From assembly GCA_023212645.1 (NCBI GenBank), contig JALBYC010000006.1:496001-560000 (forward strand): 64,000 nt of DNA, given 5' to 3'. Positions 37,718-46,194 of the stretch are shown piece after piece. Under the pieces are notes generated by a model. It was not told where the DNA came from. It searched no databases and worked only from the letters and a program-made list of their open reading frames with translations. The DNA is from Farysia itapuensis (lineage: Eukaryota; Basidiomycota; Ustilaginomycetes; Ustilaginales; Ustilaginaceae). The position numbers and the translations under genes are program-made. Position 1 is the stretch's first letter. Every line of letters starts with the position of its first letter.

Positions 37718-38431
37718 ATGGCGACCAAGATGCCGATGGTGGCACCTGTATACCTGCCAGGCCGCGAGCCACTACCTCCGGGAATGACAGAAGACGATAG
37801 AGCCCAGATGGCCGACATTGTCAAGTGGAACAAGATTGCGAATATGGGCATGGAGTCGTGCCCCGTCAAGTGTGCGCTATCTGGCGCAGCAGGCTTTGGG
37901 TTGGGAGCCTTCTTCTCCCTCATGTCGACGTCATTTGCCGTTGATGATCCACTAAGGAGAACAACGCTGGTCGCCAATGGCTTAGATCCAGGGAAAGTTG
38001 GCGCAGATATGACAACTATGCAAAGTACAAAGGAGTTCTTCAAGCAGACGGGAAAGTCCATGTACAGATCCGGAAAGGGTTTTGGTAAAGTAGGCGCCCT
38101 CTACTCTGGTATCGAATGCTGTATCGAAGCTGTGAGTATCTCAGATCCGCGCTTATTGTATGTGACATGTCTGACTCTTTTGTGGTGCCTGTCTAGTATC
38201 GAGCAAAGAACGATATTGTCAACCCTGTAGCAGCCGGAATGGCGGCCGGAACAATCTTGGCTCGCAACGCAGGACCAAAAGCAGCCATAGGTGGTGGTGT
38301 CGCCTTCGCCGCCTTTTCAGGTGCCATTGATCTCTAGTAGGTTTCTCTCACTGTCGAAAGCACGTTGCGTTGCTGGCTGCTGACCGCCTTATCACAACAG
38401 TTTCCGAAGAGAAACTCCGGATGATGATTGA
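37718..38431 (+). CDS. TIM22: Mitochondrial import translocase Tim22
   Basis: Three exons were rebuilt: 37718-38131, 38197-38336 and 38401-38431. The introns are 65 nt (GTGAGT ... TCTAG) and 64 nt (GTAGGT ... AACAG). The product is 194 aa. Without the second splice the protein would stop after AFSGAIDL. Splicing restores [14 protein letters not shown], matching the AIDYY(M/L)R-type ending of Tim22. Features are the Tim17/Tim22/Tim23 domain with Cys-containing [20 protein letters not shown], and later helices in [20 protein letters not shown] and [19 protein letters not shown]. It forms the carrier translocase in the inner membrane. It is the last housekeeping gene before the secreted-protein cluster. 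Confidence 0.92.
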
Positions 38432-38865: not shown

Positions 38866-39398
38866 ATGACTCGGATTACTTTCCTCAGTGTTGCTTTGCT
38901 CGCCAGCATCAGCTATGTAGCATCCTCCTCTTACTCTCCCTGGTCTCCGATTCGCACGGACGAGCAAGCTTGGCAAGTTGCTTGCGGACATTCAGCACAC
39001 CCTGGAGCTGTCTGTCTAAGCGCTCAGAACGGTGACCGCTCGCTGTACGGCGTGCAGAACACCGCTCGCAATGATGTCGTCTTTTCCGGTGGAGGACATT
39101 GTAAGTAGCTAAAGACTCCAAAACAGTTGAGCGACATTCCTAACACCTTATCTCCCCCCTCGCAGATCTGATGGCTTACTGTCCTAATCTCGACAAGGGT
39201 GAGCAGCCGTACGCCATTCATTACGGTTTGACCAACGACGCTGCCTTTTACCGAATCTTGGGACGCAGGTCCGACCAGCTATGCTGCAACACCCAGTACA
39301 TCGACGTTGACCGCAACCCAAGCGAGATGCAATGCGTTCAACCCGCAGTCCCTTCAAACGTGCAATTCCCGCCTACACACCTCGTCATCAGCTCTTAG
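38866..39398 (+). CDS. Small secreted six-cysteine protein, cluster gene 1
   Basis: The exons are 38866-39100 and 39166-39398, with a 65-nt phase-1 intron (GTAAGT ... CGCAG). The product is 155 aa. A signal peptide (MTRITFLSVALLASISYVAS) is followed by SSYSPWSPIRTDEQAW. The six family cysteines occur in VACGHS, AVCLSA, AYCPNLDKGE, QLCCNTQYI and MQCVQP (spacing C-x9-C, C-x33-CC-x15-C). The product has no membrane segment, GPI signal or known catalytic motif. It is the first of five tandem same-strand paralogues and has the longest upstream spacer from a housekeeping gene. The function is unknown. A secreted, possibly plant-facing effector is inferred from size, cysteines and clustering in a smut-like genome. 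Confidence 0.88.
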
Positions 39399-39957
39399 AT
39401 AACCAGTCAGTCTGGGCATTCGCAATTGAATTTGTCTCGAGCGAGCTTGTCTCAACTGAGGCTGGGGGACTTCGGTTTATGTACATATGGCGACATTTCG
39501 CTTCTTAAGTGGACGTAGACATGAAACTGCCGTAGAGAACAGCGGTGGTAGCAAGGCAATATGTGTAACCATCGTCTTGAACACGTGGGCAAGGTCGTGC
39601 TTGTTGGCGTGAGGAGGCGGAGGCTTGACCCTTCCGTACGATGTTAATATAGCTGACAGTGTGTCTCCACGGTCCCGCTGGGTGTCATTGTAGTGCGCCG
39701 AAAACCCAAACAACGATGATAAGTTCTTTCAATTTGACACTGGCGAAGGCTGCACGACGGTAAAGCTTCATATGCTTTCCCACTGCGAGCCCACCCCGGA
39801 GACATCAGCCGAACAGGTGAGTGGGTCATCGTGGTGCAGTCCCGGTCCGGAACTCCACCAGTCGCTATCCCTACACCTCAGAAGATGACTTATAAGTCAT
39901 CTGTCCTTCGCTGACGAATTGTATCCCATCTCTCAGACTCCGGCTATTGATTTCAAG
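39399..39957. promoter_or_regulatory. Spacer between cluster genes 1 and 2
   Basis: It contains the gene 1 3' region and the gene 2 promoter. A perfect 20-bp palindrome at its end (39883-39902) encloses the TATA element. No gene remnant was recognised in the remainder. Confidence 0.5.
39883..39902. promoter_or_regulatory. 20-bp perfect palindrome containing TATA box
   Basis: AGATGACTTATAAGTCATCT is identical to its reverse complement. It combines inverted TGAC/GTCA half-sites of bZIP type with a central TTATAA. It lies 56-75 nt before the gene 2 ATG at 39958. Confidence 0.7.
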
Positions 39958-40502
39958 ATGCTCTCGACTTCACACCTTGCTCTCACCCTGCTGGCCTGCC
40001 ATGGCTACACAGTCTTTGCCTCCTCTATCTGGTCCCCAATTCGCACTGACAACGCAGCTTGGCAGGCTGACTGTGGAAACGCTAAGCGTGTCGGAGCGGT
40101 CTGCATGACCGCGACTGGTGACCGTAGCAACTATCAAGTTCAATTCAACGACGTCCAGAACGTCCTGTTCTCGGGTACTGGAAAGAGTATGAAGCCGTTA
40201 AAATTCTCCGTGTTGTTTGAATGCACTGAGTGCTGACCTTCTGCATCCATTTCTGCACAGATTTTATTGCATACTGTCCCAATCGCGATAAAGGTGAATA
40301 CCCGTACCTCATCAAGTACGGGGAGTCTACCTTGCACATCATGGGACGCACTTCGAACCAGGCATGCTGCGACACTCATTACTCGCCTGCCGACGGCGAC
40401 TTTGTCCCAGCTCGCTGCATCCCGCCTGCTATCGTCTCTGCTGGAACGTTCCCAGACAGCGATGATGTTGGCCATGGGTTCGGCCGCACGATCCATGACT
40501 AG
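39958..40502 (+). CDS. Small secreted six-cysteine protein, cluster gene 2
   Basis: The exons are 39958-40186 and 40261-40502, with a 74-nt phase-1 intron (GTATGA donor, CACAG acceptor). The product is 156 aa. A signal peptide (MLSTSHLALTLLACHGYTVF) leads into ASSIWSPIRTDNAAW. Cysteines are in ADCGNAKRVGAVCMT, AYCPNRDKGE, QACCDTHY and ARCIPP. C3 to CC is 29 residues, four fewer than in the sister genes, owing to a shorter KYGESTLHIMGRTS loop. The tail after the last cysteine is about 27 residues. The frame opens upstream only with TTG, so ATG 39958 is the start. It is clearly paralogous to gene 1; the function is unknown. Confidence 0.88.
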
Positions 40503-40999
40503 GCAGTACAGTGCTCGCTTAATGAAAGCTCTATCCGTTCGTCCTAGTGATGTCGACTCTAATTTGAGAAGGCTGTGAACCTGGAAACCATCATTACCAG
40601 TAACGGAGGGAACCCTGCACCCTCATCTATTTGCCTCAAAAGCTGAAAGTACAATGTCGGAGTCTAGCCACCGGGACAGAGCGGCTGGAAATGACATTTC
40701 ATTGAAGTGAGGGTCAGACTGGGATTGATCAGTCCAGCTGGAACTACGTGTCCATCAGATCAGCCAGATTGAATATCAGAGCAAGAACAGAAGTCATTTC
40801 ACTCCTGCAATGTGAATGCTTCAACCGAGAAAGATGAGCTAGAGCATAGAACTACTGTCACGTTGATGTGCATTGTGCAGAAGCAAGCGGCCTCAGATTC
40901 GTTTTCTGCCTTGCTCAAAAAGACCTGAACAAGTTAAAAAGGCAGATCAAGTCGCGATGGAGATCATCCTCCAGCCTCAATTCGGTGTGCGGCAAGAAG
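40503..40999. promoter_or_regulatory. Spacer between cluster genes 2 and 3
   Basis: About 500 nt without a recognisable gene. A TATA-like TTAAAAAG lies at about 40934-40941, some 65 nt before the gene 3 ATG. Confidence 0.45.
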
Positions 41000-41564
41000 A
41001 TGCTTTCGAACGTGTTCCAAGCAGCCATTGCACTACTTTCTCTCAGCCAAACGGCGTTGACCGCGCACACTTGGTCCCCGATCCGCACCGATGAACAAGC
41101 ATGGCATTCTGCTTGCGGTTATGCGAAACGAGTGGGAGCTGTTTGTCTCAGTGCCCGTTACGGAGAGCGCAGCTACTACAAAGTTCAGTCTGATGCGGTT
41201 CACAACGTTGTCTTTTCCGACACCAAACGTTGTAAGTACATGAGAGCTTACCTCTGTGTTCTGTTTAGCAATTGACGAGGGATTTGAATGTTAAGATTTA
41301 ATGGCGTACTGCCCTAACCTCGACAAGGGTGAGAGGTCGTACACGATCAGCTATGGATCAGGTGCCTATGCTTCTACCTTCACAATCATGGGACGTACTT
41401 CCAACCAACAGTGTTGCGAGACTCACTACATCCCACCCGAGGGCGACATTAATATGAGTGAATGCATCAGGCCAGCTGTGATCTCTGCTGCTTTTTTCCC
41501 GGAAGGCCAAGATCTGACGCAGGATTACGACGAGCCTTCGCTTTCGCCGGACAGGACGAATTAG
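41000..41564 (+). CDS. Small secreted six-cysteine protein, cluster gene 3
   Basis: The exons are 41000-41231 and 41296-41564, with a 64-nt phase-1 intron (GTAAGT ... TTAAG). The product is 166 aa. The acceptor at 41295 is chosen because it restores RYLMAYCPNLDKGE; the TAG at 41268 would lead straight to a stop. A signal peptide (MLSNVFQAAIALLSLSQTAL) precedes HTWSPIRTDEQAW. Cysteines are in SACGYAKRVGAVCLSA, AYCPNLDKGE, QQCCETHYI and SECIRP, with family spacing. The C-terminal tail is longer and acidic (FFPEGQDLTQDYDEPSLSPD). Function unknown. Confidence 0.87.
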
Positions 41565-42175
41565 ATCGATAGATCAGTAAACACTCTTCGACCATGGTAG
41601 TAGACAACACGTGCTTCAGAAATTGCTAAAATTTGTGAGTCGCTAAGTGTGATTGAATCTCCTCGTGCTGGTCTGTTTCTCATAATCCGTACGAACTGTA
41701 CGAAGATTACGTGTGACAATGACGTGAAGAAAAGAATTGGCCGAAAGGGTGTAACGAGGAAGTCGCAACAAAAGCGATTCATCGCACTATGGGTGAACGT
41801 GTTACCGAAATGTGCACTCTACATGCTCTGCACGCGTGAGGATAGACTCACAATGCACGGATACAACGCTTGGGACAGAGTTCAGAGTCGATTCCACGTT
41901 CAAGGGCGTTGCTCTTACTAAGACTGGTGGGCTCGTGCATTCTTGTATGTACTGGGCGGGACTGTGGATTGAGTAAACAAGTGGGCAAGGATGCTGACGA
42001 AAGTGGGCCTCAATTTACACATGAGCCTCAACTTCATCCGGTACTCATTCTTGTTCTTTGTTTGCACATTCTGGAAAGGCTAGCGACTATATAAGAAGAC
42101 GAACGCGATGAGAAGTCCTGCCGATCATCACTTTCTTCCTCTCTGTCTCACCGATCTTTACTTGCTTGCTTTAAG
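41565..42175. promoter_or_regulatory. Spacer between cluster genes 3 and 4
   Basis: This is the longest spacer in the cluster (611 nt) and fairly AT-rich. A short stretch at about 41874-41918 weakly resembles the end of family exon 1 (see findings). TATATAAG at 42088-42095 lies about 80 nt before the gene 4 ATG. Confidence 0.45.
42084..42095 (+). promoter_or_regulatory. GAC-TATATAAG core promoter of cluster gene 4
   Basis: CGACTATATAAG resembles the GAC-TATAAG cores of gene 2 (39887-39896) and gene 5 (43113-43122), here with one extra base. It lies about 85 nt upstream of the ATG. Confidence 0.5.
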
Positions 42176-42668
42176 ATGATCTCGAACGCCAAGCTCTTTG
42201 TCGCTTTGCTTGCCAGCATGACCTACGTGTCTGCATGGTCGCCAATTCGCACGGACGATGCTGCCTGGGCTGCAGGCTGTGGACATTCCAAGCGTGTCGG
42301 ATCCGTCTGCCTGGATACGCATCGTGGTAAGCACTCTCTGTTCAACGTGCAGGATGCTTTCCAGCAAAACGTCGCTTTTTCTGGAGATGGCCAAAGTGAG
42401 TAGTCCCCGGGAGTCGGCTAGATACGAAGGATTAGCTGACTCGCCTGCATGTCGCTCAGAGCTGTTGGCTTACTGCCCGAGCCTCGACAAGGGCGAAAAG
42501 CCCTACAGCATCAGGTATGGCACGGGTGACTCTGTTTTCTTCTACCACATTCTTGGTCATGATTCGAGCCAAAGCTGTTGTTCTACTCAGTACATCAGCG
42601 CGGATCGTACGATGTCCTTTAGCAGATGCCTGGAGCCTGCGGTAGGCTCCAACGCAGCTTTTCCCTAG
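42176..42668 (+). CDS. Small secreted six-cysteine protein, cluster gene 4
   Basis: The exons are 42176-42395 and 42460-42668, with a 64-nt phase-1 intron (GTGAGT ... GCTCAG, with a GCTGAC branch-point-like element). The product is 142 aa, the shortest intact member. The predicted signal peptide (MISNAKLFVALLASMTYVSA) would be cut directly before WSPIRTDDAAW, leaving that motif as the mature N-terminus. Cysteines are in AGCGHSKRVGSVCLD, AYCPSLDKGE, QSCCSTQYI and SRCLEP, with standard spacing. It ends soon after the last cysteine (AVGSNAAFP), so the long tails of the other members are not part of the core. Function unknown. Confidence 0.88.
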
Positions 42669-43176
42669 CTCACTAGTCTACAAGCTAGTAGGCCTGATAT
42701 CGTCACGTGTCGTAATCTAGTTGACTGATTTTGCTCACGAATGGTGTCTGCTCAAGACGGAGTGAGCTCGTGCTAAGGTAATGAAATCTGTGTATTTGCG
42801 TTAAGTTTAGTCAACTTCTCTCTACTTCAGCGTGTCTATGTGAGCCTGAGATGTCCAGTAGCCTGTTGATGGACATCTTGTCCGCGTTTTTCGACCGCTG
42901 ACATTTCTTCGGAACTGGAACTTGAGCAGTCTACTTGGTCCCACTGACGGAGGAAAGATGGTGGGCTACAAAGCACGAACGTGTCCATATGGTGGGTCAC
43001 GTCCAACATCCCACTGTGGGATGCCGTGCGATCATGATGGAGGTCACATCTCTGCTCTCTCAGATGGTCTTTCCTGTCCAGACGAATCCACGCCACAGCG
43101 GCTACCCTCAATGACATATAAGCTGACATATGACTGCTCGTTTGAGTTCTTCTTCGACGTCATTAACAAAGGCAGT
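42669..43176. promoter_or_regulatory. Spacer between cluster genes 4 and 5
   Basis: It contains an 8-bp inverted repeat with a one-base spacer at 43007-43023 (CATCCCAC-T-GTGGGATG) and a core promoter ATGACATATAAG at 43111-43122, about 60 nt before the gene 5 ATG. No gene remnant was recognised. Confidence 0.5.
43111..43122 (+). promoter_or_regulatory. ATGACATATAAG core promoter of cluster gene 5
   Basis: It differs at one position from the gene 2 element ATGACTTATAAG and lies a similar distance from the ATG (about 60 against 67 nt from TATAAG). Confidence 0.55.
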
Positions 43177-43752
43177 ATGGTCTCGCTCTCGATTTTTAAC
43201 TTCACTTTGCTTGCCTTTGTTGGCTTGGTCGCTGCTGCTCCGACCCCGGACATGTACATTCCTCCCGCTGACCCTCCTGGTCCGTCAGGGTTTAGCCCTA
43301 TTCGCTCAGACGATGCCGCTTGGATAGCAGCTTGCGGAAAGTCCGCCCGTGTAGGCGCTGTCTGTCTCAGCGCAGAGTATGGCGACAGATCTCTGTACGA
43401 GGTTCAGACTTCTTTCCAGCAGAACGTCGTCTTCTCGGCTGGAGGAAACTGTAAGTTTCTGTCGATTTGCTGCCCAGCTTGAACTTCTGCAGATGGCTGA
43501 CTCCTTGTCCCTATTGCGCACATAGACTTGAATGCGTACTGTCCTGTCCTTGACAAAGGCGAGCGTCCGTACAAGCTAGAATACGGACAGGGAAACGCGA
43601 TTGTCTACTATCATGTCCTGGGACGACATTCGAGCCAGACTTGCTGCAACACGCAGTACATCAACGAGAACGGCGATGCCGCCTCTGTCCAGTGTGTTCA
43701 GCCAGCTATCGGCTCAGGAGCTTACTTCCCTCCCGAAGAAATAATTCAGTAG
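43177..43752 (+). CDS. Small secreted six-cysteine protein, cluster gene 5
   Basis: The exons are 43177-43450 and 43526-43752, with a 75-nt phase-1 intron (GTAAGT ... CATAG). The product is 166 aa. A signal peptide (MVSLSIFNFTLLAFVGLVAA) is followed by a Pro-rich insertion of about 18 residues unique to this copy (PTPDMYIPPADPPGPSG) before FSPIRSDDAAW. The usual Trp of WSPIRTD is Phe and Thr is Ser. Cysteines are in AACGKSARVGAVCLSA, AYCPVLDKGE, QTCCNTQYI and VQCVQP, with standard spacing. The pseudogene directly downstream is most like this copy. Function unknown. Confidence 0.88.
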
Positions 43753-43763
43753 TTTCAAGAGAG

Positions 43764-44038
43764 CAGTTCATAAGTGCAAGTTCTTCGTTGTTTCTATACG
43801 TTGGTGACTGTGTGACCTTTCGTGGTAACTTCGATGCCTACCTTTCAATACTGTACAGAACGAGAGACCACCTGATCTGCGGTATGAACAAGGAGACTTG
43901 ATCCCCCATTATCGCAATCTGTATCGCAAGTTTAACGAAGAAAGCTGCAGTCCCAACGTCGATATCGTCTCTGTTCAGTGTGTTGAGCCGATAGTGGGAG
44001 GAGCGGCTCTGTTTGTTCCGGAACATCGTCCTGTATGA
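43764..44038 (+). pseudogene. Degenerate, apparently intron-less sixth cluster copy
   Basis: It begins about a dozen bases after the gene 5 stop. One frame reads EQFISASSSLFLYVGDCVTF and then RGNFDAYLSILY, aligning with gene 5 from CLSAEYGDRSLY through the exon junction to NAYCPVLD with no intron between. After a one-base loss (between about 43842 and 43874) the next frame reads LRYEQGDLIPHYRNLYRK, then VDIVSVQCVEPIVGGAA to a TGA at 44036. This matches gene 5 LEYGQGNAIVYYHVLGR and DAASVQCVQPAIGSGA. The start, signal peptide, C1, C3 and one of CC are lost. It is a broken duplicate and presumably not expressed as protein. Confidence 0.65.
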
Positions 44039-44277: not shown

Positions 44278-44931
44278 ATGATGCTGCTGCGCTTTGCCGC
44301 ACCCGTGCTGGCGACCTCGCTGCTCCTGGTACCGTGGAGTCAGGCACAGCTGCTGAGGCGTGATTCGCTGTACCCCGTTCTGGCCTCTGACTCAAAATAC
44401 GAGAGCAACTGCCCTTCGGATGCTGACCACATGAATGGATGTATGCACTTCAACATTACAGCTGACCCGCGCAGCGATCCGCAGTTGGTCAGCGAGCTTG
44501 CCTACGACACGGGCGACACCATCCTCGTCGATCCCCTCTACATCGGCCAGACCGTGCCCACAAACACTGGCTGTGCCGTGCTGAACCACATTCATTCCCG
44601 TACGTATCTCTCGCAGCGAATTTTGCGTCCCAGTGGGTGAGATTACTGACGCGCGCTGTGCATAGATATTGCTCTTGTTGGCAACGCACGATGTCGAGAA
44701 AACCGAGTATTTGTGTATGGCTATTGGCTTTCCGTTTCGGCGTCGCAGGATCAGCCGGGCTGTCTTCAGGTCGAGCTCGTACCCCCCACGACCGCAGATG
44801 TCGGCAACGCCATCATCACTGTGTCAGAAGCCCAGTGGGACCAGTCTGCCAGTCTGAGCACAAACAGTCAGGTCTACTTCGTCTGTGGACCGGAAGAAAT
44901 TCCCCAGGTGACACTCAACATCTCGCTGTAG
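44278..44931 (+). CDS. Small secreted cysteine-containing protein, different family
   Basis: The exons are 44278-44599 and 44666-44931, with a 66-nt phase-1 intron (GTACGT ... CATAG, with a TACTGAC branch-point-like element). The product is 195 aa. The signal peptide is MMLLRFAAPVLATSLLLVPW ... AQA, followed by LLRRDS, a possible Kex2-type dibasic site. Six cysteines occur in SNCPSDADHMNGCMHF, NTGCAVL, NARCREN, PGCLQV and YFVCGPEE. Two potential N-glycosylation sites are NIT and NIS. The SPIR and LDKGE motifs are absent, so it is not an evident paralogue of the five, though it shares strand, size class and intron phase. Function unknown; possible effector. Confidence 0.8.
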
Positions 44932-44982: not shown

Positions 44983-46194
44983 CTAGTATGGCTTGAAGCG
45001 GCGTCCGGCTTTGAGTTTAGCGACTTTCTGCTTGTCTGCCTCGAATTTGGACCGCAAGTCGGCCAGGTTCTCACGCTTTCGTTCCCGCATCTGGAAGCGG
45101 TAGAAGTCTTCGAGTCCGGCTGATTTCTTGTTCTGGTTCTCCTGGAAGTCGCGTTTGGCAATGCCGACGGACCCGCCTCCGCTAGCGCCCGCACCGGCAC
45201 GACCGTACTTGCCCGATCTCTGCACAATGATGAATCCATCTTCGTCCAGAAGCTCGCCATTGGGGCCGACAGTGACACCACGTACGCCAATTTTGCGCGG
45301 GAGTGGGTTTGCTTTGCGGTACTGGTAGAGGGCGATGCGTGAGTCTGCCCACTCTTTCACCTCGCTCAGGTCAGGTCGGCAAGCACGGTGTTGTTCGAGC
45401 AGGTACTGCAGACCAGCAGGCGGGATCCCTGCTCCTGCCGACAGGAGAAAGGATGCAGATGTGGTCGTTTTTGGTTTGTGAGTGGCCGCGGAGTGCTGTG
45501 ACTCGATCTGCGCCTGCCGTTGAGCTTCTTTGCGTATAGACTTGAACGGATCAACCCATTTGATGCCTTTCTGGAGTACTGCAATGGCGCGCTGTAACGA
45601 TTCTGCGTCGAGGAACACAACGTGTGCTGACGAAGACGTGGTCAGGAAGGGCTGCGAGCCCATGGCTACCCTCGGATCGAAACCGGGCAACGGGACTACC
45701 TGGGGCACTCTGCTCTTGGTGAGCATGCCCGCTTTCTTCGCTGCTTTCCCGGTGAGCTGGTGATGCGTACTCCCTTCAGTATCGACTTCGCCTTCCCCCT
45801 TTTCCTCTCTCTCGTCTTCCTCCTCCGCAGCCTGCGAATATCTAAACTTAATAGAGGAAATCGTTCCAGCATTTAAGAAAATCTCTCGTAGATGCGACTC
45901 TGTTGTATCCGTCGGCAGATTTGCCAGGAACAGCGTCCGATCCGAGTCCAAAGCCGCATCGTCGCCACTTTTCGAGCTAGAAGCGGCGCTAGACGTGTGC
46001 TTGCGTGCATAGATCCAATGTTGAGCAGACTGACTCAACGTCGTACGAGGAAGCACGACGGGAACAGCTAGAAATCCATTAGCGAGCAAGACAGCCGCGC
46101 CATCTTTGCTCGTCATGTGCTTGGAGCTGGACGCTACAGCTACATTGACGTCACTCTTGGCTTCAGCGCCCGCTCTGGCACTTCTCTTGCCCAT
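44983..46194 (-). CDS. RRP7: Ribosome biogenesis protein Rrp7
   Basis: The protein has 403 aa and starts at MGKRSARAGAEAK. A divergent RRM-like N-terminal half is visible (RTLFLANLPTDTTESHLREI; AHVVFLDAESLQRAIAVLQ), with an acidic EEEDEREEKGEGEVDTEG insertion. The C-terminal Rrp7 domain is highly conserved (LDEDGFIIVQRSGKYGRAG; DFYRFQMRERKRENLADLRS; KLKAGRRFKPY). It is part of the UTP-C/CURI complex for 40S assembly in the nucleolus. It marks the return to housekeeping genes after the secreted cluster, 51 nt from the stop of the last secreted gene in convergent orientation. Confidence 0.92.
   Translation of the reverse strand: MGKRSARAGAEAKSDVNVAVASSSKHMTSKDGAAVLLANGFLAVPVVLPRTTLSQSAQHWIYARKHTSSAASSSKSGDDAALDSDRTLFLANLPTDTTESHLREIFLNAGTISSIKFRYSQAAEEEDEREEKGEGEVDTEGSTHHQLTGKAAKKAGMLTKSRVPQVVPLPGFDPRVAMGSQPFLTTSSSAHVVFLDAESLQRAIAVLQKGIKWVDPFKSIRKEAQRQAQIESQHSAATHKPKTTTSASFLLSAGAGIPPAGLQYLLEQHRACRPDLSEVKEWADSRIALYQYRKANPLPRKIGVRGVTVGPNGELLDEDGFIIVQRSGKYGRAGAGASGGGSVGIAKRDFQENQNKKSAGLEDFYRFQMRERKRENLADLRSKFEADKQKVAKLKAGRRFKPY

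What the first reader, a model, noticed from the sequence alone, without database searches (positions are those of the whole stretch)
38866..44038. Tandem cluster of five paralogous secreted six-cysteine proteins between TIM22 and RRP7
Five intact same-strand genes and one broken copy encode proteins of 142-166 aa with a signal peptide. They share the motif (W/F)SPIR(T/S)Dxx(A)AW at the mature N-terminus, CGxxxxxGxVC, AYCPxxDKGE, and the cysteine pattern C-x9-C ... C-x29/33-CC-x15-C. All flanking genes are conserved housekeeping genes, so this is a lineage-specific island. In smuts such clusters often encode plant-induced effectors (the five-gene mig2 locus of Ustilago maydis is a known case of similar layout). 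I cannot place this family in a named one from sequence alone. A role in host interaction is inference.
Basis: partly seen in the sequence, partly recalled or inferred. Interest (0 to 1): 0.85.

Follow-up and report, generated by a model that had tools for sequence, protein, structure and literature searches.

The report
Five-gene secreted protein cluster in smut
A smut-type fungus carries five old duplicated genes, side by side, for small secreted proteins of a family without a name; they look like tools for dealing with a plant or with neighbouring microbes, but nothing yet shows what they do.

Summary
Five intact same-strand genes (155, 156, 166, 142, 166 aa) and one decayed exon-2 copy lie at 38866-44038. 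Each intact gene has one phase-1 intron at the same place, a hydrophobic leader and six mature cysteines in one pattern. Leave-one-out profiles find every left-out exon at E 2.7e-26 or better. Genome searches with g5 and g3 hit only this locus.

No Pfam match reached its cut-off. A profile search found 7 relatives, all without organism names, while the RRP7 control reached named smuts. AlphaFold is confident for one relative (pTM 0.79) and moderate for another (0.69); no PDB match at E<=0.001. Synonymous differences are near saturation, protein changes fewer, and the g1 and g5 lines have counterparts in relatives: old, maintained genes.

One correction: another orphan secreted gene lies at 44278-44931, so the neighbours are not all housekeeping.

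Effector-type action is the best reading but unproven. New member of a known kind.

The parts
38866..39398 (+). g1: exons 38866-39100 and 39166-39398, 155 aa secreted six-Cys protein
   Evidence: splice model and stop; counterpart P0001 67% identical over 97%
39958..40502 (+). g2: exons 39958-40186 and 40261-40502, 156 aa
   Evidence: exon-2 profile leave-one-out E 2.7e-26
41000..41564 (+). g3: exons 41000-41231 and 41296-41564, 166 aa, long C-terminal tail
   Evidence: tail letters EPSLSP shared with P0006, although by identity P0006 is no closer to g3 (44%) than to g2 (46%)
42176..42668 (+). g4: exons 42176-42395 and 42460-42668, 142 aa
43177..43752 (+). g5: exons 43177-43450 and 43526-43752, 166 aa, proline-rich stretch after the leader
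   Evidence: exon-1 counterpart P0007, 95/95 in the exon-1 tree, with a similar proline-rich stretch
43829..44038 (+). relic: decayed exon-2-like copy, exon 1 and start of exon 2 not found, most like g5
   Evidence: hmmsearch E 5.5e-7; 25 identities in 61 columns with g5
44278..44931 (+). neighbouring orphan secreted gene, exons 44278-44599 and 44666-44931, 195 aa, six mature Cys; not hit by the family profiles
   Evidence: splice model; no Pfam and only itself in the genome, both with a 196-aa version that differs at the splice site; family profiles
37718..38338 (+). left flank: Tim17/Tim22/Tim23-family gene (end approximate, read by eye)
   Evidence: Pfam PF02466 E 5.7e-13 for 37718-38230
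44983..46194 (-). right flank: RRP7
   Evidence: Pfam PF12923 E 1.5e-23; 91 database relatives at E<=0.001

Best explanation
An old tandem family of small secreted disulfide-stabilised proteins that act outside the cell as effector-type proteins in the fungus's contact with its plant surface or host. Shown here: gene anatomy, shared intron, leader and six cysteines, near-saturated divergence with restrained protein change, two subfamilies, counterparts of the g1 and g5 lines in unnamed relatives, a confident predicted fold for one relative and a moderate one with the same element order for another. Inferred: the leader is cleaved shortly before the (W/F)SPIR(T/S)D start; the six cysteines pair as three bonds in the secretory pathway; the compact beta-rich domain keeps a conserved face (IRxDxxAW and AYCPxxDKGE; not mapped on the model) and varies its loops and tails, so that the copies bind different extracellular partners (host proteins or glycans). 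Duplication supplied the copies; a sixth has decayed.
For: Five genes with the same phase-1 intron and cysteine spacing. No Pfam match at cut-off and only chance-level PDB sequence rows. Hits only at this locus in the held 13.7 Mb assembly. pN 0.31-0.42 against pS 0.69-0.77 in 10 of 10 pairs. Relatives group with particular copies: g1 with P0001 and P0003 at 87/95, g5 with P0007 at 95/95. Same order of helices and strands over the core in models of two subfamilies. The island is less GC-rich than its flanks, 0.509 against 0.558 and 0.548. Another orphan secreted gene lies next door. Published context, passages only: smut effector genes often lie in clusters (PMC8120014; PMC9816061).
Against: No expression, localisation or phenotype data. 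Secretion judged by a hydrophobicity scan only. The likely species may have no parasitic stage. Protein change is restrained on average, which is not typical of arms-race effectors; saturated pS leaves no power to see selection at single sites. No structural match points to a target.
Confidence: 0.52

Rival explanations
1. Antimicrobial or competition proteins: the cluster arms an epiphytic yeast against other microbes on leaves; the paralogues differ in target spectrum.
For: Weak structural rows to actinoporin-like proteins recur in both models.
Confidence: 0.22
2. Cell-surface or wall proteins (lectin-like) with a role in the fungus's own biology such as mating, adhesion or wall building.
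For: Conservation of the g1 and g5 lines across relatives; U. maydis has secreted lectin-like wall-decorating proteins (PMC11857070, passages); fungal fruit-body lectins appear among weak structural rows.
Against: No FB_lectin match among Pfam rows at E<=1; none in the genome either, but the control of that search did not ring. Five lineage-specific paralogues are more than such a role usually needs (inference).
Confidence: 0.18
3. A largely neutral lineage-specific family with little present function.
For: One copy has decayed.
Against: Five intact frames and pN well below pS in 10 of 10 pairs; counterparts kept in relatives.
Confidence: 0.04

Closest known systems
Mig2 gene cluster of Ustilago maydis
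   Same: Tandem same-strand genes for small secreted cysteine-containing proteins in a smut (layout recalled; seen here only as passages on mig2 promoters and genes, and as a reference title)
   Different: No named smut protein came up in the profile search; mig2-6 is induced after penetration (passage), while induction is unknown here
Mig1-like structural family of U. maydis (PMC12503489; passages, and one section)
   Same: Secreted, includes tandem duplicates, fold held by conserved cysteines
   Different: There four strongly conserved Cys in two bonds, here six conserved; the folds could not be compared, as no such model is on hand
Tin2-like effectors, U. maydis chromosome 19 cluster (PMC9816061, passages)
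   Same: Local array of secreted paralogues
   Different: That segment holds 24 secreted effectors of five gene families and singletons; this one is a single family plus one orphan gene. Fold not compared
Actinoporin-like fungal lectins (XCL and SSR2 in both lists; BEL only; ABL, SSR1 and SRL only)
   Same: Recur among structural rows of both models, 85-89 aligned residues

Membership tests
Clusters of orphan secreted effector candidates in smuts | adjacent genes for small secreted proteins without known domain | tested here: met
   secretion by hydrophobicity scan only
Clusters of orphan secreted effector candidates in smuts | induction during plant colonisation or effect on virulence | not testable with these tools
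   no expression or phenotype data
Mig2 | sequence relationship to the Mig2 proteins | tested here: inconclusive
   no named smut protein among the 7 hits; U. maydis proteins are in the database (UMAG_02564), but that Mig2 is held, and that the word filter would reach it, was not checked
Mig1-like structural family | four conserved Cys in two disulfides | tested here: inconclusive
   six conserved Cys here; pairing was not read from the model
Mig1-like structural family | TM-score above 0.5 to Mig1 models | not testable with these tools
   no library of predicted cellular proteins on hand
Tin2-like effectors | shared Tin2 fold | not testable with these tools
   no Tin2 model on hand
Fungal fruit-body (actinoporin-like) lectins | match to the FB_lectin profile PF07367 | tested here: not met
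   not among Pfam rows at E<=1 for 5 of 5 proteins
Fungal fruit-body (actinoporin-like) lectins | same fold | tested here: inconclusive

The most novel reading that the evidence does not exclude
The family defines an undescribed six-cysteine beta-rich secreted fold, kept as at least three separate lines of descent (g1, g5, and the g2/g3 group) across a smut lineage and still maintained in a small-genome leaf yeast with no known parasitic stage, where it works in leaf-surface life (against microbes or for hidden plant colonisation) and not in smut disease.
Probability: 0.25. Interest if true: 0.62.

Novelty: new member of a known kind. Interest (0 to 1): 0.42.

Why it matters
It adds an unnamed secreted family with a predicted fold that found no significant match among solved structures. 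If the organism is Farysia itapuensis, it gives a compact test of whether yeasts of smut descent without a known parasitic stage keep effector-like genes because they still colonise plants or because they use them against microbes.

Full report
Anatomy. Five genes on + share one plan: a hydrophobic leader, a mature start with (W/F)SPIR(T/S)D, one intron of 64-75 nt in phase 1 just before the (L/F)xAYCP stretch, and a second exon with four of the six cysteines. Spliced lengths are 155, 156, 166, 142 and 166 aa. The pattern C-x9-C...C-x29/33-CC-x15-C is exact in 5 of 5. Starts are 1092, 1042, 1176 and 1001 nt apart. TATA-like words lie 62-88 nt upstream of 3 of 5 starts: g2, g4, g5.

Not chance. 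Profiles built from four genes find the fifth in the six-frame set of the window at E 1.1e-26 or better for exon 1 and 2.7e-26 or better for exon 2, in 10 of 10 tests. With all five rows the only further match in the window at E below 0.1 is the decayed copy (exon-2 profile, E 5.5e-7); the next best are 0.23 for exon 2 and 0.28 for exon 1.

Extent. Protein searches of the window's own assembly as held (G000, 13,704,813 bases, 53 contigs, perhaps incomplete) with g5 and g3 at E up to 10 gave 11 and 10 matches, all inside this locus; g1, g2 and g4 were not used as queries. The decayed copy lies directly after g5 and is most like g5. Two of the spacers were searched and matched only themselves. 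Between the decayed copy and RRP7 lies another two-exon gene for a 195-aa protein with a leader (by eye) and six mature cysteines; a 196-aa version of it had no Pfam match and found only itself in the genome. So the interval between the TIM22-like gene and RRP7 is a secreted-protein island of six intact genes, not five genes among housekeeping ones.

Relatives. The five-row profile found 7 proteins at E<=1 among 2768 candidates in 5.8 billion. RRP7 of the same window found 91 at E<=0.001 among the 7993 candidates scored (a capped list), including Ustilago loliicola (61%), Testicularia cyperi (62%), Mycosarcoma maydis UMAG_02564, Sporisorium, Pseudozyma, Kalmanozyma and a name cut at 'Melano'; its best match is again 'lgn' (P0008, 75%). 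The database therefore holds smut proteomes, and the family was not seen in them; fast-changing relatives can still escape a word filter, and the g5 query alone missed all 7. Two of the 7 (P0001, P0002) run without a break across the intron site exactly as the splice model predicts; the other 5 hold one exon only. I infer that the two come from spliced transcripts or intronless copies; either way they support the intron model.

Evolution. In 10 of 10 pairs of the five genes pS is 0.69-0.77 (near saturation) and pN 0.31-0.42. These are averages over the gene; single-site selection was not tested. The exon-2 tree (11 rows) splits g2, g3, P0002, P0004, P0006 from g1, g4, g5, P0001, P0003, P0005 (95/98); g1, P0001 and P0003 group at 87/95. 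The exon-1 tree (8 rows) joins g5 with P0007 (95/95). Most forks are open (6 of 8 and 3 of 5). g3 and P0006 share an EPSLSP tail, but by identity P0006 is no closer to g3 (44%) than to g2 (46%), so I do not count a g3 line. At least the g1 line, the g5 line and the g2/g3 group therefore parted before these relatives did, and have been kept.

Organism. The nearest named relatives of RRP7 are Ustilaginales. Of the genomes in Table 1 of PMC10262431 (section read), Farysia itapuensis CBS 10428 is the only Ustilaginales one that fits in size: 13.8 Mb, 71 scaffolds, GC 54.4%; the next smallest is 17.3 Mb. Urocystis primulicola also has 13.8 Mb but belongs to Urocystidales. This naming is inference: the contig number differs (53 against 71), the held assembly may be incomplete, the table is not all Ustilaginales, and that F. 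itapuensis is an epiphytic yeast is recalled. The same paper refers to conserved effectors found in non-parasitic relatives (passages).

Reading. Secreted effector-type proteins acting in the plant or leaf-surface setting are the best explanation (0.52), with antimicrobial (0.22) and surface or lectin-like roles (0.18) as serious rivals. Host induction, location and target remain untested. Species-specific predicted effectors are common in smuts (7 to 32 per genome in PMC5897528, passages), which is why novelty is set at new member of a known kind.

Noticed in passing
44278-44931: Orphan secreted-protein gene, 195 aa, six mature cysteines, next to RRP7; no Pfam match and only itself found in the genome.
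   Followed up: partly
   Followed up: partly
P0001 and P0002 against P0003-P0007: Two of seven database relatives cross the intron site without a break and five hold one exon only, which suggests that some come from transcripts.
   Followed up: partly
upstream of g2, g4, g5: TATA-like words 62-88 nt before the start codon in 3 of 5 genes.
   Followed up: no
G000: No STE3 pheromone-receptor match in the assembly at E 0.001; the tool's controls did not ring, and PMC10262431 reports a badly assembled receptor locus in F. itapuensis (passage).
   Followed up: no
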